NCBI GenBank assembly: GCA_024742305.1
Contig: JANSYQ010000031.1
Location: forward strand, 1-41,823
DNA length: 41,823 nt
Source of the DNA: a bacterium
Lineage (GTDB): Bacteria; Bacteroidota; Bacteroidia; Flavobacteriales_D; Crocinitomicaceae
Reading direction: 5' to 3'
Made by a program: the position numbers and the translations under genes. The notes beneath the pieces were generated by a model. It saw nothing but the letters and a program-made list of their open reading frames with translations. It made no database searches and was not told the DNA's origin. Of the stretch, positions 27,419-41,823 are shown one piece after another (the first letter of the stretch is position 1; each line of letters begins with the position of its first letter).

Positions 27419-28708
27419 TTAACGATTCGCTACATCTACGTAGTCACGTGCAGTGGCACCTGTGTAAATCTGACGCGGACGTCCAATTGGCTCACCGTTT
27501 TCGATCATTTCTTTCCATTGTGCAATCCATCCTGGAAGACGTCCAATAGCAAACATTACTGTAAACATCTCTGTTGGAATTCCAATTGCTTTGTAGATGA
27601 TTCCTGAGTAGAAATCAACGTTCGGATACAAGTTACGCGCTTTGAAGTACTCGTCTTCCAAGGCAACTTTCTCCAATTTCTTTGCGATTTCCAACAATGG
27701 ATCGTCTACTCCTAATTTCTCCAATACTTCGTCACAAGCTTTCTTTATGATCGTTGCGCGCGGATCGAAGTTTTTGTATACACGGTGTCCGAATCCCATC
27801 AAACGGAACGGATCGTCTTTGTCTTTCGCTTTTGCTACCCACTTGTCCAAATCTCCTCCGTCTTCGTGGATGGTTTGCAACATCTCAATCACAGCTTGGT
27901 TAGCTCCACCATGAAGTGGTCCCCAAAGTGCAGAGATTCCTGCTGAGATAGATGCGTACAAGTTGGCGTGCGAAGAACCTACGATACGTACTGTTGACGT
28001 AGAACAGTTTTGCTCGTGATCGGCATGCAGGATCAACAATTTGTTCAATGCAGAAACTACCACTGGGTCTGGCTCGTAATCACCTGTTGGCATTCCGAAC
28101 ATCATGTACAAGAAGTTTGCTCCGTAGCTCAAATCGTTTTTTGGGTACATGAATGGATGACGCATGGCGTTTTTGTACGACCAAGCCGCCAAGGTTGGCA
28201 ATTTGGCAATCAATCGCTGAATCGTCAAGTCTTTTGCTTCCGGTGTTCTGTTCGGATCCAAAGATTCTGGATAGAAAGTTGAAAGTGAACATACCATTGA
28301 CGCCAAGATTCCCATTGGGTGTGCTTTAGCTGGATACGCTTCGAAGAACTGTTTCATGTCTTCGTGTACCAAGGTATGATTCGTAATACTTTCTTGGAAG
28401 TGATCCAATTGGTCCTGCGTTGGAAGTTCTCCATAGATCAACAAGAAAGCTACCTCTAGAAAGCTCGCTTTATCTGCAAGTTGCTCAATTGGATAACCGC
28501 GGTAACGAAGAATTCCATTCTCCCCATCCAAATACGTAATCGCACTTTGACAACTTCCTGTGTTTTTAAATCCGGAATCTAGGGTGATGTATCCGCCCGT
28601 GGCTCCACGAAGCTTTCCAATGTCAACACCTTTTTCTTGTTCTGTTCCTTCAACTACAGGCAATTCATACGATTGTCCTCCTAATTCTATCTTCGCGATT
28701 TCACTCAT
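27419..28708 (-). CDS. gltA: Citrate synthase
   Basis: Citrate synthase condenses oxaloacetate and acetyl-CoA, the entry step of the TCA cycle. The 429-residue protein matches the type II (hexameric, Gram-negative) form in length. The catalytic residues are His266 in LHGGAN, His308 in GFGHRVYK and Asp365 in NVDFYSG; the oxaloacetate-site segment HADHEQNCSTSTVR is intact. It starts MSEIAKIELGGQSYELPV. The gene stands alone: a 95-bp gap separates it from the DPP-IV-type gene upstream on the same strand, and a strong terminator follows. No clear -7 box was found in that gap. Confidence 0.97.
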   Translation of the reverse strand: MSEIAKIELGGQSYELPVVEGTEQEKGVDIGKLRGATGGYITLDSGFKNTGSCQSAITYLDGENGILRYRGYPIEQLADKASFLEVAFLLIYGELPTQDQLDHFQESITNHTLVHEDMKQFFEAYPAKAHPMGILASMVCSLSTFYPESLDPNRTPEAKDLTIQRLIAKLPTLAAWSYKNAMRHPFMYPKNDLSYGANFLYMMFGMPTGDYEPDPVVVSALNKLLILHADHEQNCSTSTVRIVGSSHANLYASISAGISALWGPLHGGANQAVIEMLQTIHEDGGDLDKWVAKAKDKDDPFRLMGFGHRVYKNFDPRATIIKKACDEVLEKLGVDDPLLEIAKKLEKVALEDEYFKARNLYPNVDFYSGIIYKAIGIPTEMFTVMFAIGRLPGWIAQWKEMIENGEPIGRPRQIYTGATARDYVDVANR

Positions 28709-28803
28709 TTTTCTATCTAAATCTTAACTATATATTCAGTTCGGTCGCCTAAGATAATACACAAAATCAATTCTATCAAGACTTCCGAAAAAAAGAATAC
28801 CCT

Positions 28804-30960
28804 CTATAAATTTTCCATGGTATATTTATACATCATTCGGAAAAGGTGGTTACGCGTATTTCCTCCATAAATTCCGTGATTCTTGTTCGGATAAATGAAC
28901 AAATCAAAGTCTTTATCCGCCGCTACCAAAGCATTAACCATTTCCATCGTATTTTGATAATGTACATTATCGTCGCCCGATCCATGAATCAATAAATATT
29001 TCCCTTTCAACTTCTCCACATGATTGATGGGTGAGTTTTCATCGTAACCAGAGGCGTTCTCTTTTGGTGTACGCATGAATCGCTCTGTGTAAATGTTATC
29101 GTAATAACGCCAGTTGGTTACCGGGGCCACAGCAATCCCCATTTTAAAGTAATCAGCGCCTTTTGTCATCGCAAGCGAAGTCATGAATCCTCCATAGCTC
29201 CACCCCATGATACCAATTCTTGTTGGATCAACATAATTCATTGTTTGTAGCTCTTTCGCTACTGCGATAAAGTCTTCTGTTTCCAGTTTTCCGAGTTCGA
29301 GATACGTACTCTTTTTAAACTCGGCACCTCTGCGCATGGTTCCTCTTGGATCCACGGAAATAACAAGGTATCCGCTTTGCGCCAAAAGTTGATGGTACAT
29401 GTAATTAAATCCGCCCCATTCATCAGCTACTGTGTTCGATCCAGGGCCTCCGTATATGTTAATGTAGACAGGATACTTTTTACTCGGGTCGAAATCTGCT
29501 GGTTTGATTACCCATCCATTCAATTCTGTTTCATGCCCTTTAAATGTGATGAACTCCTTTTTGCTCAAGTTGTAAGGTGCTAATTTTTCCATGAAAGCGC
29601 TGTTGTCTTCCATAACGGTGATTTCCTTACCCTTGCTATTGCAAAGTGAGTACACGGGAGCAGTATTGGCCGTAGAATAAGTCTTGATGAAATATTTCAT
29701 CCCGTTCGAGAAATCGGCGGTGCTTGTTCCGTGCTTTTCGCTGATGCATTCTTTTTTGGAACCATCCAACTTGATTTTATGAATAGACTGATACAGCGGC
29801 CCGAATTCAGCCGATGAATAGTAGACCGTGTTTTTCTCATCAATTCCATAGCAATCGATTACGTCCCAGTTTCCTGAAGTAACAGCGCGCGATTTGCCAT
29901 CAAAGGTCAAAGCGTAAATGTGATTGTAACCGTCTTGCTCACTCGTTCGAAGAATGGTGTTTCCGTCATCAAGAATAAGCAAGTTATCGTCGATTTCCAC
30001 GTAGGTATCAGAGGTCTCCGTGTAAAATGATTTCACAGACATTTCGGTGCCATCTAAAGTCATTAAGTGGTACTTCAATTCGTTTTGATGACGATTCAAG
30101 GTTTGTAGTACCAATTTGTTTTCGGTCGAGGACCACTTCATTCGAGGGATGTATTCATATTCGCCCAAATCAATATCTCGAATCTTACCATAAAAACTTA
30201 CGATGTGCGCGGTTACTTTCGAATTGTCCTCACCAGCTTTTGGATACTTAAACGTATATAAGTCGGGATATAAGTCATTGAAGAATTTCATATTATACTC
30301 ACGGACTTCAGATTCGTCAAAACGAAGAAAGGCAATATGTTCACTATCAGGCGACCATCCATAGGCCTTGGTGATGGCAAATTCTTCCTCATATACCCAG
30401 TCTGTAGTACCGTTAATCACCTTGTTTTTAAGTCCATCATGTGTCAAACGTCGCACATTTCCTGAAGCAATGTCCTTCACATAGATATTGTTCTCATAAA
30501 TGTAGGATACTTTCTTTCCATCCGGGGAATACTCTGCCAATGTTTGTGGTTCGTGTTCCGGATCCAACGGTTGTACCTCTTGGGTATTCAAATCGATGAG
30601 GTAATGTACCGCTGTATAACTTCTTCGGTAAATCGATTGGGTTTTTGTGGTGATGAGTGCTTTGGTTTCATCGGCGTTGAAACTGTAATCATCCATTCCG
30701 ATATCCTTCAACAGTTTCGCAGGAATGATCGTCTCGCCTTCACCTTCGTAATCTGCAAACTTGTGTTTTGTCACCGAAGGCCCTTCAGAAGTATTGGTGG
30801 TTTTAGAGAAGTAGTTTCCATCGTTCATGGACCGAAATCCAGCTACTGAGGAAGGGACGAACTCGTAATACTTCCAAATTTTTTCAACAGATAGTTGCTT
30901 GTCTTGTGCAAAAACAGCAGAAACGCTGCAAATACATACGAAAAGGATAAATTGCTTCAT
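28804..30960 (-). CDS. S9 family dipeptidyl peptidase IV-type protease
   Basis: This 718-residue periplasmic serine peptidase has a signal peptide (ending AVFAQ, residue 19). The N-terminal beta-propeller (about 90-460) carries the double-Glu motif VYEEEFAITKAYGWSPD, which in DPP-IV grips the substrate N-terminus. The C-terminal alpha/beta hydrolase domain (about 470-718) has Ser588 in GWSYGG, Asp663 in GSGDDN and His695 in KNHGIYG. Such enzymes remove X-Pro or X-Ala dipeptides in the peptide-scavenging pathway of Bacteroidota. Length and triad are normal. The gene could act downstream of the secreted metalloprotease at 8398-13470, but the two are far apart in the window. Confidence 0.95.
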   Translation of the reverse strand: MKQFILFVCICSVSAVFAQDKQLSVEKIWKYYEFVPSSVAGFRSMNDGNYFSKTTNTSEGPSVTKHKFADYEGEGETIIPAKLLKDIGMDDYSFNADETKALITTKTQSIYRRSYTAVHYLIDLNTQEVQPLDPEHEPQTLAEYSPDGKKVSYIYENNIYVKDIASGNVRRLTHDGLKNKVINGTTDWVYEEEFAITKAYGWSPDSEHIAFLRFDESEVREYNMKFFNDLYPDLYTFKYPKAGEDNSKVTAHIVSFYGKIRDIDLGEYEYIPRMKWSSTENKLVLQTLNRHQNELKYHLMTLDGTEMSVKSFYTETSDTYVEIDDNLLILDDGNTILRTSEQDGYNHIYALTFDGKSRAVTSGNWDVIDCYGIDEKNTVYYSSAEFGPLYQSIHKIKLDGSKKECISEKHGTSTADFSNGMKYFIKTYSTANTAPVYSLCNSKGKEITVMEDNSAFMEKLAPYNLSKKEFITFKGHETELNGWVIKPADFDPSKKYPVYINIYGGPGSNTVADEWGGFNYMYHQLLAQSGYLVISVDPRGTMRRGAEFKKSTYLELGKLETEDFIAVAKELQTMNYVDPTRIGIMGWSYGGFMTSLAMTKGADYFKMGIAVAPVTNWRYYDNIYTERFMRTPKENASGYDENSPINHVEKLKGKYLLIHGSGDDNVHYQNTMEMVNALVAADKDFDLFIYPNKNHGIYGGNTRNHLFRMMYKYTMENL

Positions 30961-31077
30961 GGTGATTTTTAAAATTCCGACTAAAAATAAGGATACTTTT
31001 TTCTACTAAACCGCATTAGCTGGAAAACATTAACCCATTGTTAATATTTAATTAGTGTAAGCACGGGGTTTTTGTCA

Positions 31078-31085
31078 TACCTTTG
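31078..31085 (+). promoter_or_regulatory. -7 box upstream of the lamin-tail gene
   Basis: TACCTTTG is a perfect TAnnTTTG match followed by CACC; the 10-mer TACCTTTGCA is identical to that of the birA promoter. The best -33 candidate, TTAG at 31052-31055, is one base off with a 22-bp spacer. Transcription would begin near 31090, leaving a leader of about 210 nt. Confidence 0.5.
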
Positions 31086-31131
31086 CACCGAATCGACCTT
31101 GTGTTCTCCTTGATATCGGTTATCGATTGAA

Positions 31132-31153
31132 ACCACAAAGTCGTGAAACACAG
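31132..31153. repeat. Solo end of the ACCACAAAG-type repeat
   Basis: The sequence starts ACCACAAAGTCGTGAAACAC and resembles both terminal arms of the element at 27144-27275. Only one arm is present. Confidence 0.45.
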
Positions 31154-31301
31154 ATACAATGAACTAATGCATTTCCCAACATCGGTGAATAGAGAAATTC
31201 AAAGATGTAAACTACTACAGGAGGTCAGACTCAACGACCTTGTGCATTCTTTCGTTGATACTACAGTTAATTCGTAACACTTATATTAAATGTTTTCAGC
31301 T

Positions 31302-32282
31302 ATGAAAAGAACATTACTTTTTTTAGGAACAGTTTTCATGGGCGTATCTGCTTCAGCTCAAGATTGTTCCGACCTCTTTATCTCAGAATACGTAGAGGGA
31401 TGGTCCAACAACAAGGCACTTGAAATTTACAACCCAACAGATCAGCCGATTGATTTGTCAGCGTACTTTGTTGCTAGATACAACAACGGTTCAACATCTC
31501 ACACATCGTCAAGCACAAGCTCTATTGCTGTTCAGTTGACAGGAACTTTGGCTCCTTATGATGTACACGTTGCGGTTATCGATAAGCGTGATCCTAACGG
31601 AACAGGACAAGAAGCTCCAGTTTGGGACTCATTGCAAGCGAGAGCAGACGAATTTTACTGTCCGGTATATGGTGACTCTTACGCAATGTACTTTAACGGA
31701 AACGATGCTGTAATTCTTTACAGAGGAAGTGTAAACGATATTCCAAATGCTACTCCGGTAGACGTTTTCGGTAAAGTAGGAGAAGATCCAGGTCCTGGTT
31801 CAGGTTGGTCCACAGACTTTCCATACAACAACGAAGCAGGAGTTATCGTTACTCAAGATCATTCATTGATTCGTAAGGAAACAGTTTTAACTGGACAATC
31901 AAATCCAATTCCATCATTCTTTGATCCATTGGCAGAGTGGGATTCGATTCCAGCAGTGATTGAAGTAGGTGGATTTACACAAGGTAACTGGGGGACTTTG
32001 GGATCACACACATGTGATTGTGCTACTTTGAGTATTGAAGAAGCAGCAACTCCAATGAACGTGAGCATCGCTCCAAACCCTTCTAAAGGTGCGTTCACTG
32101 TGAACAACATCGCAGCGTACACAAACGTACAAGTGATTAACTCATTGGGACAAGAAGTATACTCTGTTGATACTAACGGACAAACTTCTATCTCCATTGA
32201 TCTTTCCAACCGTCGTGGTGTTTACTTCGTGAAGCTTAGCGGCAACGGAGAAGCGGTAACACGTCGCGTGATTATCAAATAA
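31302..32282 (+). CDS. Secreted lamin-tail-domain protein with T9SS sorting domain
   Basis: From ATG 31302 (MKRTLLFLG..., signal peptide ending ASAQ) this is a 326-residue secreted protein; an in-frame ATG at 31290 is possible but adds four residues before the positive charge. After cleavage comes a lamin-tail (LTD) domain, about residues 20-135, with the hallmark LFISEYVEGWSNNKALEIYNPT split around its turns. The C-terminus is a T9SS type A domain (SIAPNPSKGAF... to RRVIIK). LTD domains are beta-sandwiches often joined to secreted nucleases and phosphatases and may bind nucleic acid or surfaces; here no catalytic domain is attached. A strong terminator-like hairpin separates it from the TonB receptor gene. 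Confidence 0.88.
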   Translation: MKRTLLFLGTVFMGVSASAQDCSDLFISEYVEGWSNNKALEIYNPTDQPIDLSAYFVARYNNGSTSHTSSSTSSIAVQLTGTLAPYDVHVAVIDKRDPNGTGQEAPVWDSLQARADEFYCPVYGDSYAMYFNGNDAVILYRGSVNDIPNATPVDVFGKVGEDPGPGSGWSTDFPYNNEAGVIVTQDHSLIRKETVLTGQSNPIPSFFDPLAEWDSIPAVIEVGGFTQGNWGTLGSHTCDCATLSIEEAATPMNVSIAPNPSKGAFTVNNIAAYTNVQVINSLGQEVYSVDTNGQTSISIDLSNRRGVYFVKLSGNGEAVTRRVIIK

Positions 32283-32291
32283 ATTTTTCAC

Positions 32292-32323
32292 AGGTCCTTG
32301 ACTTCGGTTAAGGACCTTTTTTA
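32292..32323 (+). terminator. UUCG-loop hairpin between the lamin-tail and TonB receptor genes
   Basis: AGGTCCTTGAC (32292-32302) and GTTAAGGACCT (32307-32317) pair over 11 bp (one G-T) around a TTCG tetraloop, followed by six T. It has all the features of an intrinsic terminator. The next start codon is only 11 bp beyond the T-run. Confidence 0.85.
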
Positions 32324-32333
32324 TTCATAGGCA

Positions 32334-35186
32334 ATGAAGGCAATTCTTGTAGTTCTTGCTTCGTTTCTTACGGTGGCAACTTATGCCCAAACGGGAACGT
32401 TGAGTGGAACGATAACAGACAATGTATCGAAACAACCTGTTGTTGGAGCGAAAATCGTTTTCTCCTCTCAGTTTCGGGCAATTACGGATTACGATGGGAA
32501 ATACACCATCGCAGATATGCCCTACGGAACGTACTCTGGAACGGTAACAATGCTGGGGTTTGACACGCTAACCATTTCGGTAGACATCGATCAAGCGCAG
32601 GTTTCAAATGATATCTTATTGGGAGGAAGTCAAGAGCTAGAAGAAGTTCGAGTGATCGGAAACATTGCGGAAGATCGCAAAACCCCTGTTGCGAAAACAA
32701 CATTGGATCAAAAAGAAATCCGTGAGGAATTGGCATCGCAGGATTTGCCCATGATTTTGAACTCAACTCCTGGTGTTCACGCTACAGAGCAGGGTGGAGG
32801 TGACGGAGATGCTCGTATTACTATCCGTGGATTCAACCAACGAAATGTTGGGGTAATGATTGACGGAGTTCCGGTGAACGACATGGAGAACGGCTGGGTG
32901 TATTGGTCGAACTGGTTCGGATTGGACAATATTACTTCTCAAATTCAGGTGCAACGAGGACTGGGTGCCACCAAACTAGCCATGCCTTCTGTTGGAGGAA
33001 CGATGAACATCCTCACGCAAAACACAGGAGGAAAACGAGAAATTACAGCACGTCAAGAATACGGTACAGGTAACTTCTTTCGTACTTCGGTTTCCTACAA
33101 GTCAGGAACATTGAAGAATGGATGGGGGGTACTTTTCTCGGGATCGTACAAACAAGGTGATGGCTGGGTAGATGCCCTCAACACGCAAGGAGGTTTTTAC
33201 TACCTCAAAGTGCAAAAGAAATTAGACAAGCACGTAATCTCTTTAAGTGGATTCGGTGCTCCGCAGCAACACGGACAGCGTTCTTTTGAACAAGGTATTT
33301 CTTATTGGGATGCTGAATACGGTCGAGCAATGTTCGAAGGAAGTGATGAACTGTACAACATCATCACGCGCTACCGCAATGATGGAGATTACAACGCCTA
33401 TGTTCAAGGATTGCAATCGCAAGGACTGGATGAGAATTCAGTACAACAATACATGACCAATTATGTAGATACGACAGGAGCAGAAGATCGTGGAATTCGA
33501 TTCAACGAGCACTGGGGATATCGCACCGTGGATGGACAGCGTACCATTTTGAACGAGCGTCGTAACTTCTACCACAAACCGCAAATCACCTTGAAAGACT
33601 TTTGGAAAGTGAACGAGAAATTGTCGATTTCCAATATGGTGTACACTTCTATCGGACGCGGTGGGGGACAACGTTACTTCAACTCAAGCTCTTCTATCAT
33701 TACCGATGAAAACGGACAGGTTGATTGGGATCAAATTGTTCAAAACAACCAGTTTACAACCTTTGGTGGACAAACATTTCCAACAATCGACGCGTTTTAT
33801 GATCCTGAGATGTTGAAATCATCTCAAATTCTTTCAGCGTCAATTAACAATCACTTTTGGTTGGGAGGTTTATCTCAGTTTGATTACGAATATTCTCCAC
33901 ATTTGACATTTGCTGGAGGTTTGGATTACCGCTATTACAAAGGAGAACACTATAATGAAGTGTTGGACTTGTTGGGAGGAGATTACTTCGTAAACGGTCA
34001 GGATCAGAATGCTGAATCGGATATGAAAACAGTAGGAGACAAAATTGGTCGTCAGCCTTGGCACAACCACCGTGACGGTTTGGTTCAGTGGGCCGGAGCT
34101 TTCGGGCAGATGGAGTACTCAAAAGGAGCATGGACAGCCTTCGTAAACGCTTCTGTTGTGGCGAATTTCTACAAAGGAATTGATTACTTCCGCGGAAAGC
34201 AGCTTGTATTGGAAGATACGACTCTAGAAATTGGATATGACGATGTGATCACGTACAACGGAGAAACGTACGATCGTAACTCTCCCGGTCTTCGCGATCA
34301 CCAAACGGACTGGGTAAACAAGAACGGATTTACCTTCAAGACGGGAGCCAACTACAACGTTACTGAGAAGCAAAACGTGTTCGTGAATGTTGGGTACCTA
34401 TCAAGAACTCCGATGTTCAACAACGTTATCGACAATCAAAACAACCGTGTTTTTGATACCCTAGTAAACGAAAATATTTTGGCGTTCGAATTCGGCTATG
34501 GATTCCGATCTAAGAAGTTGAGCGTGAATGTGAACGGGTATTTCACCAATTGGACGAACCGCCCATTGCCATTTGGATTGAGCGTTCAAGATCCATTGGA
34601 TCCATTGGAGGTAATTATTGTAAACATTCCAGGAATGGATGCACGCCACATGGGAATCGAAATAGATGGAGCATATCGAATCAACAAGAAATTGACGCTG
34701 GAAGGTATGGCGAGTATTGGTGATTGGATCTGGAATTCCGCAGAGGAAATTGTGGTGTATGGAGATACTATCACGTTTGATGCGCGTGGCGTTCACGTAG
34801 GAGATGCGGCACAATCGACGTATGCAGCTTCCATTCGCTGGGCACCCATCAAAGGAGGATACTTGAAATTGAAATACACATATTTTGATCGCTACTATAC
34901 AGATTTCGATCCAATTTCCCTTACGGGAGCAACAGCCGGTCGTGATTCTTGGCAAATGCCTGATTACGGATTGATGAGCTTGCACGCTGGGTACCGTTGG
35001 GCGATGGAAAAAACAACATTGAACTTCCGTGCGAATGTGATCAACCTACTAAATACGAAATACATTCTTGACGGAACAAACAACAGAAATTTCGATGAAC
35101 CTGAAAGCAACTTCAACGCGCAGTCTGCTTCGGTATTCTTCGGACAAGGAATTCGATTCAATGTATCCGTTGGATTTGAATTCTAA
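32334..35186 (+). CDS. TonB-dependent outer-membrane receptor with carboxypeptidase-regulatory-like N-domain
   Basis: This 950-residue importer has a signal peptide (ending ATYAQ), a CarboxypepD_reg-like beta-sandwich (about 20-100, GTLSGTITDNVSKQPVVGAKI...), a plug (about 110-240, including ITIRGFNQRNVGVMIDGVPVND) and a large barrel ending in aromatic Phe (SVGFEF). It lacks a SusD partner, so it is not a standard SusC pair. It moves ligand across the outer membrane using TonB energy. The ligand is unknown, but the next three genes encode a secreted nuclease and the two halves of a 5'-nucleotidase, which points to nucleic-acid fragments or nucleotides. It has no visible promoter of its own in the 51-bp gap before it. 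Confidence 0.93.
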   Translation: MKAILVVLASFLTVATYAQTGTLSGTITDNVSKQPVVGAKIVFSSQFRAITDYDGKYTIADMPYGTYSGTVTMLGFDTLTISVDIDQAQVSNDILLGGSQELEEVRVIGNIAEDRKTPVAKTTLDQKEIREELASQDLPMILNSTPGVHATEQGGGDGDARITIRGFNQRNVGVMIDGVPVNDMENGWVYWSNWFGLDNITSQIQVQRGLGATKLAMPSVGGTMNILTQNTGGKREITARQEYGTGNFFRTSVSYKSGTLKNGWGVLFSGSYKQGDGWVDALNTQGGFYYLKVQKKLDKHVISLSGFGAPQQHGQRSFEQGISYWDAEYGRAMFEGSDELYNIITRYRNDGDYNAYVQGLQSQGLDENSVQQYMTNYVDTTGAEDRGIRFNEHWGYRTVDGQRTILNERRNFYHKPQITLKDFWKVNEKLSISNMVYTSIGRGGGQRYFNSSSSIITDENGQVDWDQIVQNNQFTTFGGQTFPTIDAFYDPEMLKSSQILSASINNHFWLGGLSQFDYEYSPHLTFAGGLDYRYYKGEHYNEVLDLLGGDYFVNGQDQNAESDMKTVGDKIGRQPWHNHRDGLVQWAGAFGQMEYSKGAWTAFVNASVVANFYKGIDYFRGKQLVLEDTTLEIGYDDVITYNGETYDRNSPGLRDHQTDWVNKNGFTFKTGANYNVTEKQNVFVNVGYLSRTPMFNNVIDNQNNRVFDTLVNENILAFEFGYGFRSKKLSVNVNGYFTNWTNRPLPFGLSVQDPLDPLEVIIVNIPGMDARHMGIEIDGAYRINKKLTLEGMASIGDWIWNSAEEIVVYGDTITFDARGVHVGDAAQSTYAASIRWAPIKGGYLKLKYTYFDRYYTDFDPISLTGATAGRDSWQMPDYGLMSLHAGYRWAMEKTTLNFRANVINLLNTKYILDGTNNRNFDEPESNFNAQSASVFFGQGIRFNVSVGFEF

Positions 35187-35206
35187 ATGAGCAATAAAAC
35201 AAACAC

Positions 35207-37483
35207 ATGAGTATGAGAAAAATAGGATTATTGATTGCCGTGCTTACCGGAAGCTTTTTTTCCTTTGCGCAGCAAAATATCGCCGATGCACGTACCTTCG
35301 GTATCGGATCCACAGTAACGATTACAGGAATCGCTACGAACGGAGGTGAATTAGGACCAATTCGTTACGTGCAAGATGCCACAGCAGGTTTGGCATGTTA
35401 CGGAGGACCTATCACAGGAGTAAGTGAAGGAGATTCTGTGACTGTAACAGGACCGTTAATTGAATTCTCCGGATTGTTGGAGATTTCCATCGTAGATAAT
35501 GTAGTTAACCACGGACAAGCAATTGTTCAGCCAACTCCATTACAAATTCCAATTACGTCTGCGGGCGAATCATTGGAGTCTCAGTTGGTACAAATCGAAA
35601 ACGTTACGTTCGTTCAATCGGGTAATTTTTCAGGAAACACGACGTACCAAATTACGGACGGTACCAATCAATTGGACGTTCGCGTTAATAGCGGAACCAA
35701 CCTAGTTGGAACGGCAATTCCAACGGGTCCAGTGACGATTACAGGTCCATTGGGTCAGTTTAATGCGAACTATCAAATTGTACCACGATCTACCAACGAT
35801 ATCGTTGCTTACGTGGCGCCGTTGTACGAAATCAACGTTTTGTTGGATGGTGCTACCGTACTTCATACGTCCGATTACTTTATCGGGAATACAGCATCTC
35901 TATCTGTTGAAATTGAAAATTCGGGAACGCAGGATTTGATCGTTTCAGGAGCGAGCTTTACAGGACCAGACGCAGCCGATTTTAGTTCAAATATTGGAAC
36001 ACCAACGATTGCTGGAGGTTCTTCTCAAACATTCACTATTAACTACGCGCCTTCCAACACAGGATCGCACTTTGCTACTTTGGAAATTGCTTCCAACGAT
36101 GCAGATGAGAATCCTTACATCATCAACTTTGAAGGTGTAGGAACAGACAACTTGGCTACTGAACCAACTGCCAATCCAACTGGGTTGACATTCCCGACGA
36201 TTGAAGCGTACACACTTAACGGAACGTACGCAGCTGGAACCGGGGCGAACAACTACCTAGTTCTTTGGAAAACTGGAAGTCCAATTACGGGCGTTCCACA
36301 AGATGGAAATACGTACTTGCGCGGTGACATTATCGGTGATGCCAAAGTAGCGTATGCTGGAGCGGGAACAACGTTTACACCGCGTGGTGTGATTGCCAAT
36401 CAAGATTACCATTTCGCGGTATATGCATTCAACGGTGCTGCTGGATTCGAAAACTATCTTACGACTTCACCAGCTACAGCTAACGTAACGAGTGGTGGTG
36501 AAAACATCGGAAATTACTACGGAAGCATTACCGCGGCCTCTCCAACATTGCATACTGACCTTCAGGCATTGATCAACCCACATACTGAGGTAACTTACTT
36601 CTTGTACAAGTTGACCATGATGGATCAGTTTGAAGTACGCGATACCACCGGAGGACAATCTTACGTAGAATGTGTGTACTCAGGTGAGCGCTACGTGTTC
36701 GATGATCCATTTGATTGGACAGCTACAGGATATAGCCGTGAGCATACTTTTGCACATTCATGGATGCCAACGTTCCCAGCAGATCAGCCGGAAGAGCCGG
36801 AGTATAACGATCAGCACAACTTGTACCCAGCAAACTTAGCTGAGGCGAACTCTCCACGAAGTAACTTGCCTTTGGGTGAGATTGATGGAACGGTAGTAGA
36901 TTCATACCTTGAAGGTGCTACAGGTTACAGTGGTTCTCAGTTGGTGTACGAGCCAAGAGACAGTCATAAAGGAAATGCAGCACGTGCGATTTTCTACATG
37001 GTTACATGTTACGGCTTCCCTTTAACGGGAGTAGCTAGTGCCGATGAGCAAGATCAAGACTTGTTGAAAACGTGGCACTTCAATGACTTACCAGACAACC
37101 GTGAGATTGCTCGTCATGAGTTCATTTATAATCAGCAAGGAAACCGTAATCCATACATTGACTCAACGGATTGGGCATGTTTCGTCAACTTTGATGATTT
37201 CTCTTACGACGCAACGAACTGTAACTTGAGCGTTGAAGATCAATTACAGAACAGTATGGTGGTTTACCCTGTGCCAGCGAACGAAAAAGTTTACGTTCAG
37301 GTAAACGGAACAAAGATTACGAGCTACGAAGTAATCGACATGCAAGGACGCGTGGTGACATCTAACAATGATGCGAACTTAGACGTTGTAATCTTCAACA
37401 CGAACGAATTCTCTACGGGAAGCTACATTGTGAAAGTGACGACACCACTTGGTGAAGCACAACGCAAAATGATTGTTGAGTGA
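35207..37483 (+). CDS. Secreted endonuclease I with OB-like and choice-of-anchor domains and T9SS sorting domain
   Basis: This 758-residue extracellular nuclease has a signal peptide (ending FSFAQ). Two OB-like modules (about 22-205; GSTVTITGIATNGG, DSVTVTGPL, PVTITGPLGQF) resemble those preceding YhcR/ExeM-type nucleases. An ASPM/choice-of-anchor D domain follows (about 210-320), then the endonuclease I (His-Me finger) domain, about 440-670. Catalytic features are REHTFAHSW (Arg511, Glu512, His513), DQHNLYPAN (Asn538) and PRDSHKGNAARAIFYM. The end is a T9SS type A domain (MVVYPVPANEKVYV... to KMIVE). It is expected to cut DNA or RNA outside the cell. It starts 21 bp after the receptor gene (ATG 35207, or 35213), and its stop overlaps the next start. 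Confidence 0.92.
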   Translation: MSMRKIGLLIAVLTGSFFSFAQQNIADARTFGIGSTVTITGIATNGGELGPIRYVQDATAGLACYGGPITGVSEGDSVTVTGPLIEFSGLLEISIVDNVVNHGQAIVQPTPLQIPITSAGESLESQLVQIENVTFVQSGNFSGNTTYQITDGTNQLDVRVNSGTNLVGTAIPTGPVTITGPLGQFNANYQIVPRSTNDIVAYVAPLYEINVLLDGATVLHTSDYFIGNTASLSVEIENSGTQDLIVSGASFTGPDAADFSSNIGTPTIAGGSSQTFTINYAPSNTGSHFATLEIASNDADENPYIINFEGVGTDNLATEPTANPTGLTFPTIEAYTLNGTYAAGTGANNYLVLWKTGSPITGVPQDGNTYLRGDIIGDAKVAYAGAGTTFTPRGVIANQDYHFAVYAFNGAAGFENYLTTSPATANVTSGGENIGNYYGSITAASPTLHTDLQALINPHTEVTYFLYKLTMMDQFEVRDTTGGQSYVECVYSGERYVFDDPFDWTATGYSREHTFAHSWMPTFPADQPEEPEYNDQHNLYPANLAEANSPRSNLPLGEIDGTVVDSYLEGATGYSGSQLVYEPRDSHKGNAARAIFYMVTCYGFPLTGVASADEQDQDLLKTWHFNDLPDNREIARHEFIYNQQGNRNPYIDSTDWACFVNFDDFSYDATNCNLSVEDQLQNSMVVYPVPANEKVYVQVNGTKITSYEVIDMQGRVVTSNNDANLDVVIFNTNEFSTGSYIVKVTTPLGEAQRKMIVE

Positions 37484-38199
37484 TTCGAAATGTTGTCATA
37501 ATACTATTACTCGGAGCAGGCTTATGGGCCTGCTCTGATGTTTATAAGCTCTCGGCTGAGAGTAAGTCGGTGGTGGTTGATGATGCCATAACTTCGAATG
37601 CTTCTATTGACTCAATGATCGCTCCGTATCAAGATTCTATGTCGGCGATTATGGACGAGGTGATTGCTTTTGCACCAGCGGACTTTACCAAAGGACGTCC
37701 CAATGCTGCATTGAACAATTGGGCGGCAGATGCAGTACTCGATTTACACGCCCGACGAAATCCAGTAAGGGGACAACCGCAAATGATTGTAATCTCCCTG
37801 TTAAACGTTGGGGGATTGAGAAACCCAATTAATCAAGGTGATGTAACCGTTGGCGACATATTCAAAGTAATGCCTTTTGACAACGAGGTGGTTTGGGTAG
37901 AAATGCCTTGGGAGACAATCCCTGAAATTACCAATTACTTAATACAAAAAGGGGGAGAACCGATTGCCGGTGCTCGCTTAGATCGCGATACTTTGTTGAT
38001 CGATGGCGTTACTGCTCCTGCAGAAAGCTTTTGGATCATCACTTCTGACTATCTTATGAATGGTGGAGATAAAATGGATTTCTTTGAGCAGCGAATTGAT
38101 CAAGAGTATCACGGAGGATTGTTGAGAGATGTATTTATGGAGGCAGCCAAAACGCAGGATACTTTAGTATTTGATAATGGAAATAGAATTCAATTGTGA
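37480..38199 (+). CDS. 5'-nucleotidase C-terminal domain as a stand-alone lipoprotein
   Basis: This 239-residue protein starts with GTG (37480), overlapping the nuclease stop as GTGA. It has a lipoprotein signal peptide with lipobox LWAC (Cys18). The mature part is the C-terminal, nucleotide-binding half of UshA/CD73-type 5'-nucleotidases: LNNWAADAVLD, VISLLNVGGLR (the N...R substrate-binding motif), KVMPFDNEVVWVEM, and ITSDYLMNGGDKMDFF. It has no metal centre of its own. The missing catalytic half is the next gene, which overlaps by 1-4 bp. The two are therefore translationally coupled and probably act as a complex in the periplasm or at the outer membrane. Confidence 0.93.
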   Translation: MIRNVVIILLLGAGLWACSDVYKLSAESKSVVVDDAITSNASIDSMIAPYQDSMSAIMDEVIAFAPADFTKGRPNAALNNWAADAVLDLHARRNPVRGQPQMIVISLLNVGGLRNPINQGDVTVGDIFKVMPFDNEVVWVEMPWETIPEITNYLIQKGGEPIAGARLDRDTLLIDGVTAPAESFWIITSDYLMNGGDKMDFFEQRIDQEYHGGLLRDVFMEAAKTQDTLVFDNGNRIQL

Positions 38200-39116
38200 T
38201 GAACAGAAGAGACTTTCTTAGAAACACAGCATTGATTTCCGGCGGAACGATGATCGCTCCGTCTTTATTTTCGCGAGAAGTATTCGGTTCGAAGACATCT
38301 AAAAAAGATAAGATTACCATTCTTCATACCAACGATACGCACTCGAATATTGAACCATTTCCTGAGAATCACGCAAGGTATCCCGGTCAGGGTGGAGTAT
38401 CGCGTCGCTTCGAAATGATTGAGCAAATCCGGAACGAGGAGGAAAACGTATTACTCCTAGATGCTGGAGATATTTTCCAGGGAACGCCTTACTTTAATAT
38501 GTTTGAAGGTGTTCTGGAGATGAAGTTGATGACACAACTGGGTTATGACGCTGCTACTATGGGGAATCATGACTTTGATGGAGGAATGGACGGCTTTAAA
38601 AGTGCGAAGGAGTATGCCGATTTTCCATTTCTCTGCTCGAATTATGACTTCGCGAATACAGAGTTAGATGGACTCACGGAACCTTACACAATTTTCGAGA
38701 AAGGACGCTACAAGGTGGGGGTTTTTGGAGTAGGAGTAGAGTTGGATGGACTAGTTCCTGACAACAAATACGGAGAAACGAAGTACATTGATCCGGTGGA
38801 AACAGCCACGGATTGTGCTTCGAAATTGAAGGAGGAGGGCTGCGACTTAATTATCTGCCTATCGCACTTGGGATATACTTACGACGATGAAACCCGAATG
38901 TCGGATATCAACCTAGCGCGAAAAACCAAGGATATTCATCTCATCATCGGGGGACATACGCATACTTTCCTTGAAAAGCCCGTTGAAGAAACGAACGCAG
39001 ACGGAAAAACTGTTTTGATCAATCAAGTGGGCTGGGCCGGAATCAATTTGGGGCGTATTGACTTTCACTTTGAAAAATCGACGTTTGAAAAAGATGAACT
39101 GATTTTGGTGCAGTAA
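38199..39116 (+). CDS. 5'-nucleotidase N-terminal catalytic domain (metallophosphoesterase), Tat-exported
   Basis: This 305-residue calcineurin-like phosphoesterase is the catalytic half of a UshA-type 5'-nucleotidase. Metal ligands are present: TNDTHSN (Asp46, His48), LLDAGD, GNHDFDGG and GGHTH. The N-terminus, NRRDFLRNTALISGG, is a twin-arginine signal, so the enzyme is probably exported folded with its metals. The start is ATG 38199, overlapping the previous stop by 1 bp (TGATG); an in-frame GTG at 38196 is also possible. It ends directly after the catalytic domain, with no substrate-binding domain, which the preceding gene supplies. The likely activity is release of phosphate from nucleotides. 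Confidence 0.94.
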   Translation: MNRRDFLRNTALISGGTMIAPSLFSREVFGSKTSKKDKITILHTNDTHSNIEPFPENHARYPGQGGVSRRFEMIEQIRNEEENVLLLDAGDIFQGTPYFNMFEGVLEMKLMTQLGYDAATMGNHDFDGGMDGFKSAKEYADFPFLCSNYDFANTELDGLTEPYTIFEKGRYKVGVFGVGVELDGLVPDNKYGETKYIDPVETATDCASKLKEEGCDLIICLSHLGYTYDDETRMSDINLARKTKDIHLIIGGHTHTFLEKPVEETNADGKTVLINQVGWAGINLGRIDFHFEKSTFEKDELILVQ

Positions 39117-39178
39117 TTTTATGCTTCGGAGATAAGTCTAGTAAAATACCGAGATATTGATGCAAAAAAGCAGAAGTA

Positions 39179-39200
39179 CACTGAGCTTGTCGGAATGGTC
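39179..39200. repeat. Solo copy of the GAGCTTGTCG-type repeat
   Basis: CACTGAGCTTGTCGGAATGGTC shares the GAGCTTGTCG core with the units at 3093-3184 and lies in the 186-bp gap before the outer-membrane barrel gene. Confidence 0.5.
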
Positions 39201-39302
39201 TAAGTATCTTTCCATCTTTACCCTAAAAATCAAACGTTAAATATTTTCTTTTTTCCAACCCTTTGAATTGGCAGGTCGTCTTGGAGGTAAACACTCAAAC
39301 AC

Positions 39303-40004
39303 ATGAAATTAATTGCTTATCTATCCGCTTTATTCATTACCACTTCTGTAGTTGCGCAGGAGGAAATTATCATTATTGATCGTTCAAAATCGCGAATTAA
39401 AACTGAACGAGACGTAAGAAAAACTGAGAACACTCAAGTCGTAAAGTTTGCTCCACTAAGTTTGTTCGACGGGGAGATTTTGTTCGGTTATGAGCGTCAG
39501 TTGACCACCAAGGGAAGTGTTGATTTGGAACTTGGACCGACTATATCAAAAATTGGTTTCGGTATTCCCGGACATGTCGGAGATCCTTTTCAGCCATCCG
39601 TAGGAGAGTCTACTGGTATGGGGTTCGTTACGGGTATAGCGTATCGCTACTATCCATTGGATGAAACCGAAGCTTTGAATCGCTTTTACGTGTCTCCTCA
39701 GTTTCGCTACAAGCTCTACACGCATTCGGTACAAGATTATTCAGGTTTTGTCCCGGGAACGCAACGTGGAAATGAAACGATGGCAAACTTCTTCTTTAAT
39801 TTCGGTTATCAATCTTGGCTTTCGGAAACGTTCTCCTTGGACTTTTACTTCGGATTGGGAATCGGAAATTACACAAGTACAAATTACTACGCTGAGAGTT
39901 TCTTCAACGGGACAGATTGGGAATATCAGTGGAGAGAAGACAGTCGATCTGGTGCACGCTACGTGTTAAATGCCGGAATCAAAGTAGGAATCGGATCCAA
40001 GTAA
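39303..40004 (+). CDS. Small outer-membrane beta-barrel protein
   Basis: This 233-residue protein has a signal peptide (ending SVVAQ, residue 19) and a short charged stretch. It then shows eight or so amphipathic strands (FDGEILFGYERQL, VTGIAYRYYPL, FYVSPQFRYKLY, FFFNFGYQSWL, FSLDFYFGLGIG, YVLNAGIKVGIG) typical of an OmpA/OmpW-sized barrel. DUF3575-like proteins look similar. No enzyme motif is present. It lies 186 bp after the 5'-nucleotidase gene on the same strand, with a repeat between, so its membership of the cluster is uncertain. Its stop is 1 bp from that of the convergent glycosyltransferase gene, with no terminator between. Confidence 0.82.
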   Translation: MKLIAYLSALFITTSVVAQEEIIIIDRSKSRIKTERDVRKTENTQVVKFAPLSLFDGEILFGYERQLTTKGSVDLELGPTISKIGFGIPGHVGDPFQPSVGESTGMGFVTGIAYRYYPLDETEALNRFYVSPQFRYKLYTHSVQDYSGFVPGTQRGNETMANFFFNFGYQSWLSETFSLDFYFGLGIGNYTSTNYYAESFFNGTDWEYQWREDSRSGARYVLNAGIKVGIGSK

Positions 40005-40005
40005 A

Positions 40006-40968
40006 TCAAACGTACCAAACGGTTTTACCGAACGTATATCCTAAGCGCGTCACGAGTTTTTCGAGGCGCGTTTTTTCTTTTGGGTAAACGGCTAAAAGCA
40101 AGAGATCGCAATCGCAGGTTTTTGGGTCCAAAATGACGTGTCCCTGAACAGGTGCATTGAATCGCTCGAATTCGTGATCGTACCAGCGAATATCGAAGTC
40201 ATTCTGCAAGTGCTGAACCACCATTTTACCTTTTGGTCCTGCTCCAAAAACACCCAAAGTTTTTCCATTTTCGTTGCGTTGGAACCAGTCCAGTTTCAGT
40301 TGAAAAAAGGAAGGTTGATCGTATACCTCAGAATTACGGGAGGTACGACCAGGATGCTCCCGCCAATGGTGCGTTACCTGATTCACAGGGATAATTTGGT
40401 AGCCATACTTTTTCCAGAGGAATGTCATGTCATAATCTTCCGGATATTGCAATTGCTCAAAGATTAGATCTTCACGTAAAAACTTTGTGGGCACGAGCCA
40501 GTTTGGCGACGCAATAACGCATTCGCGATAGATGTGGTCGTAATGATCGTTCTGTTCTATGCGTTCGTTTAGCCAATTTTCGTATTTCCGATAACCTTCT
40601 GAAACCTCACTTTCAGAGAAGTATTGAACTTTTCCTGTAACTACGCATCGTTCTTGCTTGGCATGCTTCAAAAGAACCTCTAATTTGTCTTCAGGCATCC
40701 GGTCGTCTGCGTCCATACGTGTGATATAGTCTCCCGTTGCTTGATTGAGTGCCGTTTGCAATGCTGGAATAATTCCTTCACCTGCATTCTTTTTTACTCG
40801 AATCCGCGGATCGTTAAAGCCCTGAATCAATGTTGTTGTTTCATCCGATGAATAATCGTCAACTGCAATCAGTTCCCAATTTTCATGGTGCTGATTTTGA
40901 ATGGATCGAATCGTTTCTTCCATCCAAGGGGCGGCATTTCGATAGGGAAGTAGGATAGAGATTTTCAT
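40006..40968 (-). CDS. Family 2 glycosyltransferase with C-terminal Rossmann-like domain
   Basis: The first 220 residues or so form a GT-A glycosyltransferase: SILLPYRNAAPWMEETIRSI, the nucleotide-binding VDDYSSD, the metal-binding DADD (in RMDADDRMPEDKL) and a catalytic-base region YPEDYD. The last 85 residues are unusual: KTLGVFGAGPKGKMVV has the GxGxxG shape of a dinucleotide fold, followed by CDLLLLAVYP, so a small Rossmann-like module is attached. Donor and acceptor are unknown. There is no membrane segment. The start overlaps the stop of the upstream esterase by 4 bp (ATGA-type), indicating coupling. Confidence 0.9.
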   Translation of the reverse strand: MKISILLPYRNAAPWMEETIRSIQNQHHENWELIAVDDYSSDETTTLIQGFNDPRIRVKKNAGEGIIPALQTALNQATGDYITRMDADDRMPEDKLEVLLKHAKQERCVVTGKVQYFSESEVSEGYRKYENWLNERIEQNDHYDHIYRECVIASPNWLVPTKFLREDLIFEQLQYPEDYDMTFLWKKYGYQIIPVNQVTHHWREHPGRTSRNSEVYDQPSFFQLKLDWFQRNENGKTLGVFGAGPKGKMVVQHLQNDFDIRWYDHEFERFNAPVQGHVILDPKTCDCDLLLLAVYPKEKTRLEKLVTRLGYTFGKTVWYV

Positions 40969-41744
40969 TCTTTCGAACCAAACATGTGTTCAAATGCATC
41001 GTAAACGGCAAGGTGTAAAACATCGCCATGGTCATTCTCTTTAAAGAAGCCCCAGTACAGCTGATCGTTCTCTTCGATCTCCTTCGATAACTTTCTTCGT
41101 AGTTTCTTGGCAACACTTTTCATCTCTTTACCTTCTTCTCCCACACCAACATAGATGTTTAAATCATGCTCTGCTTCCTTCATTTCTAGGTCCAAATACG
41201 ATTCATAATCAAACCAAAGGCTCGGACTAATAATGATGTAATTTTGAAACATGTTGGGATGCTTCATCAGTATTTCCGTGGCAAGCAATCCGCCGAATGA
41301 CTGTCCGATGAGCGTGCGTTCCGGCGTGGTGTTGTAGTTGGATTCGACATACGAAAATACCTCCGAATCAAGGTAACGAATGAATTTGTCTGAACCGCCC
41401 ATTTCCGGGTATTCTGCCTTGTGAAGAGAATCTCTTGTGTCACTTGTAAAATCTCTTGTTCTGTCTACATTTTCGATGCCGACAACAATGCTTTCAGGAA
41501 TCATATTGATCCATGGGAATGAACCGAATTGTACCAACCCCGCGATATGAATGAAATCTTCATGCGCCGATCCGTCTAACAGATAAATGACAGGATATGT
41601 TTTCGCAGAATCTGCCGAGTACGACTGAGGCAGGTAGACATTCAGAATGCGTTCCTCATCCATGATTTTGGAAGTCGTTGTCACGCGATCTCCAATACTA
41701 AAATCCGAAACCGTTTCCAATTTGGTGATGGCGAGAGTGGGCAT
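40965..41744 (-). CDS. Alpha/beta hydrolase, esterase D/IroE-like (5' end uncertain)
   Basis: This hydrolase has 259 residues if it starts at ATG 41744. The core is intact: NVYLPQSY, YPVIYLLDG, the nucleophile elbow GQSFGG (Ser149), ISPSLWFDY, and the catalytic His in ENDHGD (His239). It belongs to the group that includes siderophore esterases; the substrate is unknown. Related proteins usually begin with a signal peptide. None is visible here, and the frame stays open upstream for at least 26 more codons to the right edge, passing through a 41-bp repeat (41730-41805). The true start, perhaps with a signal peptide, may lie outside the window. It is coupled to the downstream glycosyltransferase gene. 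Confidence 0.82.
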   Translation of the reverse strand: MPTLAITKLETVSDFSIGDRVTTTSKIMDEERILNVYLPQSYSADSAKTYPVIYLLDGSAHEDFIHIAGLVQFGSFPWINMIPESIVVGIENVDRTRDFTSDTRDSLHKAEYPEMGGSDKFIRYLDSEVFSYVESNYNTTPERTLIGQSFGGLLATEILMKHPNMFQNYIIISPSLWFDYESYLDLEMKEAEHDLNIYVGVGEEGKEMKSVAKKLRRKLSKEIEENDQLYWGFFKENDHGDVLHLAVYDAFEHMFGSKE

Positions 41745-41805
41745 CGTGCTCGCCGAGCCTATTCGATGGTCGGGGAAGTGGACATCATGCTCGCCGGGCC
41801 GATCT
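41730..41805. repeat. Two 41-bp-spaced repeat units at the right edge
   Basis: CATCGTGCTCGCCGAGCC (41742-41759) and CATCATGCTCGCCGGGCC (41783-41800) differ at two positions, and the flanking bases (GTGG before, AT after) also match. The spacing is 41 bp. The first unit contains the esterase start codon assigned here. Confidence 0.7.
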
Positions 41806-41823
41806 TCAATAGGGGAAGGATTC

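What the first reader, a model, noticed from the sequence alone, without database searches (positions are those of the whole stretch)
31302..40004. Candidate extracellular nucleic-acid scavenging locus: secreted LTD protein, TonB receptor, secreted nuclease, split 5'-nucleotidase, barrel
Seen: six same-strand genes, all with export signals, three of them joined by near-zero spacing (nuclease stop and GTG start share GTGA; next overlap TGATG). Known: endonuclease I cuts DNA/RNA, UshA-type 5'-nucleotidases release phosphate from nucleotides, TonB receptors import ligands too large for porins, and LTD domains accompany secreted nucleases. Inference: the genes form a pathway from extracellular DNA/RNA to fragments, uptake and nucleoside plus phosphate, analogous to a polysaccharide utilisation locus but without SusD.
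Basis: partly seen in the sequence, partly recalled or inferred. Interest (0 to 1): 0.78.

Follow-up and report, generated by a model that had tools for sequence, protein, structure and literature searches.

The report
DNA-uptake receptor with its own nucleases
A block of bacterial surface genes (a DNA-cutting enzyme, an outer-membrane import receptor and a phosphate-releasing enzyme) looks like a machine for taking in environmental DNA, and its receptor is a distant relative and apparent stand-in of one that a bird-infecting relative seems to need to acquire genes.

Summary
The genes are as described. The core is LTD protein, TonB receptor, secreted nuclease: in 86 counted loci of seven families the LTD gene is directly upstream in 85 of 85, and a DUF5689/nuclease protein directly downstream in 83 of 84, that could be judged. 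The catalytic domain in that slot is Endonuclease I in some lineages and an unrelated PLD nuclease in others, so the constant theme is nucleic acid. The split 5'-nucleotidase is an addition of the window's family (33 of 33 with room; no hit in the 55 loci fetched from six other families); the terminal barrel is incidental (6 of 33). The receptor is related to a second type (B), which sits beside a DUF5689 lipoprotein and usually a divergent EEP nuclease, and matches in architecture the Riemerella pair whose deletion abolishes natural transformation (PMC8459023). The two types never co-occur: 89 and 47 of 150 genomes in the order, 99 and 88 of 395 in the class, overlap 0. Best reading: TonB-powered DNA import with built-in nuclease, for food, transformation or both. 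Import and substrate are inferred; Riemerella sequences were not retrieved.

The parts
31078..31085 (+). promoter-like TACCTTTG (Bacteroidota -7 type TAnnTTTG), about 215 bp upstream of the LTD gene
   Evidence: read; consensus recalled, not tested
31302..32282 (+). secreted LTD-domain protein with T9SS type A sorting tail; first gene of the conserved core
   Evidence: Pfam LTD 1e-13, Por_Secre_tail 1e-11; N-terminal ExeM-like match NF033680, 55 bits, below its cut-off; homologue directly upstream of the receptor in 85 of 85 loci with room
32292..32317 (+). terminator-like hairpin between LTD and receptor (probably partial termination)
   Evidence: 5 such sites in the 9.2 kb scanned against 8.0 expected in shuffles, so alone not significant; elements of this kind in the same gap of 33 of 86 loci, 20 of 35 in the window's family, against a mean of 4.0 and 2.5 in 20 shuffles of those gaps
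32334..35186 (+). TonB-dependent receptor, 950 aa (type A)
   Evidence: Pfam CarbopepD_reg_2 9e-13, Plug 6e-16; barrel model resembles TonB transporters
35207..37483 (+). T9SS-secreted nuclease: DUF5689 (residues about 95-199), choice-of-anchor D (226-301), Endonuclease I (447-653), sorting tail (686-757)
   Evidence: R511, E512, H513, N548 invariant in 46 of 46 EndoI-type partners, window included
37480..38199 (+). 5'-nucleotidase C-terminal (substrate-binding) domain as a separate, probably lipid-anchored protein
   Evidence: Pfam 5_nucleotid_C 2e-14; overlaps nuclease by GTGA
38199..39116 (+). 5'-nucleotidase N-terminal metallophosphatase domain as a separate protein with Tat-like signal
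   Evidence: Pfam Metallophos 1e-18; solved 5'-nucleotidases from 2.9e-36 (snake venom) to UshA 1.6e-21
39303..40004 (+). small outer-membrane barrel; probably not part of the system
   Evidence: OMP_b-brl 0.0083, below cut-off; homologue in 6 of 33 family loci

Best explanation
The locus encodes a TonB-powered outer-membrane system for taking in environmental nucleic acid, most likely DNA. Two T9SS-secreted surface proteins handle the substrate: the LTD protein and the DUF5689-Endonuclease I protein, which cuts it. The receptor moves the pieces to the periplasm with TonB energy. In the window's family a split UshA-type 5'-nucleotidase, encoded directly behind the nuclease, strips phosphate from nucleotides. 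The receptor (type A) is a distant homologue and functional stand-in of the type B receptor, whose pairing with a DUF5689 lipoprotein matches the Riemerella pair that is indispensable for natural transformation. What enters can be eaten, or handed to the ComEC/DprA route present in this genome. Shown: genes, domains, intact catalytic motifs, conserved order, nuclease-fold exchange, homology and mutual exclusion of the two receptor types. Inferred: substrate, direction of transport, division between food and transformation.
For: Core order in 85/85 and 83/84 loci of seven families. EndoI or PLD nuclease in the same slot, catalytic motifs intact: 46 of 46 EndoI; 37 of 40 in the PLD set carry both HxKxxxxD motifs. 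A and B receptors match each other's profiles over about 660-710 positions (118-316 bits), while 10 of the 11 other large ORFs that either profile found scored 67 bits or less. Overlap of A and B is 0 of 150 (within-family expectation 8.3) and 0 of 395 (expectation 22); exclusive within single genera g3, g25 and g35. Type A EndoI or PLD nucleases also sit near B receptors in 6 of 100 B loci. In the window's family both A (33 of 33 with room) and B (5 of 5) loci carry the 5'-nucleotidase pair nearby, and the one family genome without A or B among 42 (G026) has no match to either half at the cut-offs used. Long B loci show a receptor with a carboxypeptidase-regulatory domain (PF13715 in 4 of 4 scanned, PF13620 in 3) and an adjacent DUF5689 lipoprotein, the architecture reported for RA0C_RS04915/RS04920, whose markerless deletions gave no detectable transformants (PMC8459023, sections 18, 20, 21 read, passages). 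tonB mutants lower transformation in R. anatipestifer, tonBA without an iron defect (PMC8383284, passages); R. columbina transforms better without phosphate or peptone (PMC7965970, passages). The window's genome has ComEC, DprA and a DUF1343/NamZ protein.
Against: No R. anatipestifer sequence was retrieved: the scan kept 80 of at least 588 relatives, so the B = RA0C link rests on architecture, adjacency and an NCBIfam family named after an R. anatipestifer locus tag, matched at 158-227 bits against a cut-off of 475. A and B share only about 25% identity, and a FastTree run did not unite them against the window genome's other receptors. Exclusion is clustered by lineage, and A/B were split by score thresholds. 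A fused nuclease could destroy transforming DNA. The receptor (-25) and its partners are not positively charged. ComEC does not discriminate: 86 of 89 A, 37 of 47 B and 11 of 14 genomes with neither have it at E 1e-10 (split checked). In R. anatipestifer phosphate or peptone removal lowers transformation, opposite to R. columbina.
Confidence: 0.62

Rival explanations
1. Pure nutrient scavenging: surface nuclease and nucleotidase break DNA/RNA to oligonucleotides, nucleosides and phosphate, the receptor imports the products, and transformation plays no part.
For: Active-site motifs intact in secreted nucleases; 5'-nucleotidase genes directly behind the nuclease in the window's family; PLD nucleases with weak NucT matches (below cut-off) in other lineages.
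Against: The receptor is related to and mutually exclusive with the receptor type matching an essential transformation gene; no nucleotidase hit in the loci of the other six families.
Confidence: 0.22
2. The receptor imports something unrelated (iron, a cofactor, a glycan) and the nucleases are a co-regulated surface function such as biofilm or neutrophil-trap DNA degradation.
For: Many TonB receptors import metals and vitamins (established knowledge); the model's nearest solved folds are PqqU, Fiu and OprC, which say nothing about ligand; negative net charge.
Against: Adjacency to nucleases of two unrelated folds across seven families, and a related receptor beside a third fold, EEP.
Confidence: 0.1
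3. The receptor works in secretion, helping to release or display the LTD and nuclease proteins, as a TonB receptor does for PopC in Myxococcus (example cited within PMC8383284).
For: Both neighbours are secreted proteins; a TonB-dependent exporter has precedent (reference seen).
Against: Both neighbours carry T9SS sorting tails and so have their own exporter; the type B partner falls in a lipoprotein family.
Confidence: 0.05

Closest known systems
Riemerella anatipestifer RA0C_RS04915 / RA0C_RS04920 (natural transformation pair, PMC8459023)
   Same: Outer-membrane protein with carboxypeptidase-regulatory domain, adjacent to a DUF5689 protein; conserved adjacency
   Different: The window's partner carries choice-of-anchor D, Endonuclease I and a T9SS tail in place of DUF5017/choice-of-anchor J; LTD gene upstream and nucleotidase pair downstream; receptor lies in a separate clade from type B. 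R. anatipestifer sequence not compared directly
SusC/SusD polysaccharide utilisation loci
   Same: TonB receptor beside genes for secreted degrading enzymes
   Different: No SusD and no glycan enzyme in the locus; the enzymes are nuclease and nucleotidase
Endonuclease I family (EndA, Vvn)
   Same: Pfam PF04231; E-H and metal-ligand N motifs invariant (roles recalled)
   Different: 758 aa multidomain T9SS protein tied to a receptor
UshA / CD73 5'-nucleotidases
   Same: Both domains present
   Different: Split into two genes, C-domain first, with different export signals
ExeM/NucH extracellular nucleases
   Same: LTD protein and DUF5689 part give weak matches to N-terminal segments of ExeM/NucH models
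   Different: Modules are on separate proteins here; no EEP domain found in the window locus

Membership tests
TonB-dependent transporter | Plug domain and large outer-membrane barrel | tested here: met
   Plug 6e-16; Foldseek to PqqU 3.5e-28, model mean pLDDT 63.6, higher in the barrel strands
TonB-dependent transporter | TonB-dependent uptake | not testable with these tools
   needs experiment
SusC/SusD PUL | SusD lipoprotein beside the receptor | tested here: not met
   no SusD model for the nine window proteins scanned between 28804 and 41744
Riemerella-type transformation receptor pair (type B) | receptor directly followed by DUF5689 protein | tested here: met
Riemerella-type transformation receptor pair (type B) | partner with DUF5017 / choice-of-anchor J C-terminal domain | tested here: not met
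   window partner has choice-of-anchor D and Endonuclease I instead
Riemerella-type transformation receptor pair (type B) | receptor inside the type B clade | tested here: not met
   A (86 rows) and B (4 rows) separate at SH-aLRT 100; 14 B rows one clade; about 25% identity
Riemerella-type transformation receptor pair (type B) | direct homology to RA0C_RS04915 | not tested
   sequence not obtained; one search returned 80 other relatives
Riemerella-type transformation receptor pair (type B) | needed for transformation | not testable with these tools
   needs deletion mutant
Endonuclease I (PF04231) | domain above gathering score with catalytic E-H and metal N | tested here: met
   93 bits against 25; E512, H513, N548 invariant in 46 of 46; residue roles recalled from Vvn
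UshA 5'-nucleotidase | metallophosphatase and C-terminal domain in one protein | tested here: not met
   both domains present but on two genes; UshA equivalog cut-off 600 not reached, 122 and 45 bits

The most novel reading that the evidence does not exclude
Across Bacteroidia, DNA crosses the outer membrane through one family of TonB-powered receptors and not through type IV pili. It comes in two interchangeable versions that never share a genome: type B, tied to transformation, and type A, which carries its own exchangeable nuclease (EndoI or PLD) and in some lineages a nucleotidase, making DNA uptake for food and for genes variations of one machine.
Probability: 0.42. Interest if true: 0.88.

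Novelty: new variant of a known kind. Interest (0 to 1): 0.72.

Why it matters
How bacteria of this phylum move DNA across the outer membrane is open: the Riemerella screen found essential genes without known function. A class-wide, nuclease-armed counterpart of that receptor would give a transport mechanism (TonB), a candidate surface nuclease and a direct genetic test of the old question whether DNA uptake serves food or gene exchange. It would also suggest a role for DUF5689 and for hundreds of uncharacterised loci.

Tried and rejected
Rejected: the barrel 39303-40004 as a system part (6 of 33); SusD or a PUL; one simple six-gene transcription unit (hairpin); an RNA element upstream (no Rfam match at E 0.5 in 28000-41823; fold z -1.35); a positive-charge argument for DNA binding. 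Inconclusive: how often nuclease types were exchanged (3 changes on the tree after one label was corrected, but PLD loci as one clade not rejected, p-AU 0.077); the kinship of A and B (a FastTree run with eight own-genome receptors, midpoint-rooted, did not unite A and B against them; I relied on profile scores, where one own paralogue, L224 of G000:C40, also reached 202 bits with the A profile); ComEC as discriminator. The fold of the DUF5689 domain was not resolved: the structure hits seen cover mainly the C-terminal jelly roll; any OB-fold assignment is recall.

Rows and limits: four receptor-fragment loci (L067, L115, L119, L120) were dropped; L080, whose receptor frame is interrupted, was kept and its partner looked for one gene further on. 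L065 was labelled PLD because its partner is cut by a contig end; relabelled EndoI, but it still sits in the PLD set of 40. In the class searches only the best two candidates per genome were scored. Neighbourhoods of the class-level type A hits were not fetched. The profile for the third type B protein also hits DUF5689 proteins, so its count (54 of 80) is inflated.

Paper searches that listed nothing. DUF5689 occurs in one held paper, and the locus tags of RA0C_RS04915, RS04920 and RS02645 in the same one only. The library lacks most subscription journals. One search gave nothing useful.

Full report
What is there. The nuclease is a 758-residue protein: DUF5689-like N-terminus, choice-of-anchor D domain, Endonuclease I domain, T9SS sorting tail. 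The two nucleotidase halves match UshA/CD73-type enzymes, the metallophosphatase half strongly and the C-terminal half weakly. A hairpin of 11 pairs followed by T's lies between the LTD gene and the receptor. In the 9.2 kb scanned such sites are not more frequent than in shuffles (5 against 8.0), but in this particular gap they recur in 33 of 86 loci, 20 of 35 in the window's family, against means of 4.0 and 2.5 in 20 base shuffles of the same gaps. This suggests that more LTD protein than receptor is made. The window is contig C42 of a 4.09 Mb genome. Its family is taken to be Crocinitomicaceae, because genome G033 of the same family has a contig of the same length (390,341 bases) as Crocinitomix algicola NZ_LYPF02000001.1; the window's own species is not known.

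Conservation. The receptor was found at E 1e-80 or better in 89 of 150 genomes of the order. I fetched the neighbourhoods and annotated them by BLAST with the window's proteins. Of 86 loci counted (four with receptor fragments left out), an LTD homologue is directly upstream on the same strand in 85 of 85 with room, and a nuclease/DUF5689 protein directly downstream in 83 of 84; the miss is L068. In the window's family both nucleotidase genes follow in 33 of 33 loci with room. Where the C-domain gene directly follows the nuclease gene (32 loci), 27 have a nuclease/C-domain gap of at most 5 bases and 29 a C-domain/N-domain gap of at most 5. None of the 55 type A loci fetched from the other six families has a nucleotidase hit anywhere in the stretch. 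A homologue of the barrel follows in 6 of 33.

The nuclease changes fold. In ten non-window partners scanned, the catalytic domain is Endonuclease I in L085, L069 and L075 and a double PLD domain in the other seven. Catalytic motifs are intact: R511, E512, H513 and N548 invariant in 46 of 46 EndoI partners; both HxKxxxxD motifs in 37 of 40 members of the PLD set, the exceptions including a mislabelled row (L065) (residue roles recalled from the Vibrio nuclease Vvn). Substitution of one nuclease fold for another beside the same receptor is the strongest sign that the receptor's business is nucleic acid. The number of exchanges is uncertain: 3 changes on the tree, but one origin of the PLD type is not rejected (p-AU 0.077).

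A second receptor type. A family search for DUF5689 over the same 150 genomes showed strong hits (E below 1e-25) in 43 genomes, none of which has the window's receptor and all of which have the receptor type described next. Reading 20 of those loci gave a second system, type B: receptor, DUF5689 + DUF5017/choice-of-anchor J lipoprotein, often a T9SS protein with an ExeM/NucH-like segment, and a divergent EEP-family nuclease. In 100 B loci (20 unnamed, 80 named, a few duplicated) the EEP gene is within 1.5 kb upstream and divergent in 64 of 91 with enough flank; DUF5689 is within 1 kb downstream on the same strand in 72 of 80, several of the rest being overlaps that the script scored as upstream. 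Type A EndoI or PLD nucleases also stand near B receptors in six loci (L130, L131, L162, L210, L215, L219). In the window's family all five B loci carry the nucleotidase pair within about 4 kb.

Mutual exclusion. Type B was found in 47 of 150 genomes, type A in 89, both in none, neither in 14. If B were placed at random within families, 8.3 shared genomes would be expected (P about 1e-9, not corrected for kinship inside families). In 395 genomes of the class: A 99, B 88, both 0, expectation 22. The split runs inside single genera (g3, g25, g35). In g25 the type A receptor of G014 groups with the window's, as if the A locus had entered a lineage whose other sampled members carry B. The two receptors are homologous: each profile finds the other over about 660-710 positions, whereas 10 of the 11 other ORFs over 600 residues that either profile found in the fetched DNA reached 67 bits or less. 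A FastTree run with eight own paralogues did not unite A and B against them, and one own paralogue reaches 202 bits with A, so the exact kinship among receptors is open.

Link to transformation. A transposon screen in Riemerella anatipestifer found RA0C_RS04915 (predicted outer membrane, pfam13620) and its neighbour RA0C_RS04920 (DUF5689 + DUF5017, choice-of-anchor J) indispensable for natural transformation; markerless deletions of each gave frequencies below detection (PMC8459023: outline, passages and sections 18, 20, 21 seen). The authors proposed that the first transports DNA and the second binds it. Sixteen further B loci were read: a DUF5689 protein is next to the receptor in 15 (not L246), a divergent EEP gene in 12, one EEP gene on the receptor's strand (L243), and none in the genes listed for three (L239, L246, L248). 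Of four of these receptors scanned, all have PF13715 and three PF13620. Of six of the lipoproteins scanned, all match NCBIfam lipo_M949_1556 and four also choice-of-anchor J. That family is named after a gene of R. anatipestifer CH3 (listing, passages); with the two, eight matches score 158-227 bits, below its cut-off of 475, six of them over nearly the full length. In L247 the C-terminal part is ExeM-like, the segment that the window's LTD protein resembles. In R. anatipestifer, tonBA and tonBB mutants transform less, tonBA without an iron defect (PMC8383284, passages). In R. columbina, removal of phosphate or peptone raises transformation about two- and five-fold, read by its authors as DNA for food (PMC7965970, passages); in R. 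anatipestifer such removal lowers it. The window's genome has ComEC, DprA and a DUF1343/NamZ protein, but ComEC is in 134 of 150 genomes (86 of 89 A, 37 of 47 B, 11 of 14 with neither) and does not discriminate.

Mechanism proposed. LTD and nuclease proteins at the surface bind and cut DNA; the receptor imports it with TonB energy; nucleotides are dephosphorylated by the two-part nucleotidase; longer strands could go to ComEC. Nothing measured here shows transport, substrate length, DNA against RNA, or regulation. The net charge of the receptor is -25 and its partners are acidic, which does not favour simple electrostatic binding. A fused nuclease argues for food; exclusion with type B argues for the transformation role; both can be true.

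Verdict. It should not be filed as a member of the Riemerella pair, because the partner domain and the clade differ; it probably works like it.

Noticed in passing
L247:10595-12001 (G511): A type B DUF5689 protein ends in an ExeM-like segment instead of the choice-of-anchor J domain, linking the LTD and DUF5689 modules.
   Followed up: no
L066 (G014, family f3, genus g25): Type A receptor (68%) and nuclease (63%) closest to the window's, in a genus where two other sampled genomes (G040, G096) carry type B: likely horizontal transfer of the locus.
   Followed up: partly
G000:C54:247322-250608: In the window's genome the DprA match starts about 260 bp beyond the start of a TonB-receptor-like ORF (L231) on the opposite strand.
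   Followed up: no
L224 (G000:C40): A second own receptor of 817 aa scores 202 bits over 700 positions with the type A profile; its neighbours were listed but not identified.
   Followed up: partly
window 32292-32317: Terminator-like hairpin between LTD and receptor recurs in 20 of 35 loci of the family (2.5 expected from shuffles), suggesting graded expression.
   Followed up: partly
L131 (G030): Hybrid locus: type B receptor and lipoprotein followed by a type A PLD nuclease.
   Followed up: partly
window 28804-30960: Divergent dipeptidyl peptidase IV gene; an opposite-strand ORF of 700-760 aa lies upstream in 30 of 33 family loci, not confirmed by family search.
   Followed up: no
window 8401-13470: 1690-residue T9SS-tailed reprolysin-like metalloprotease with P-domain.
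   Followed up: no
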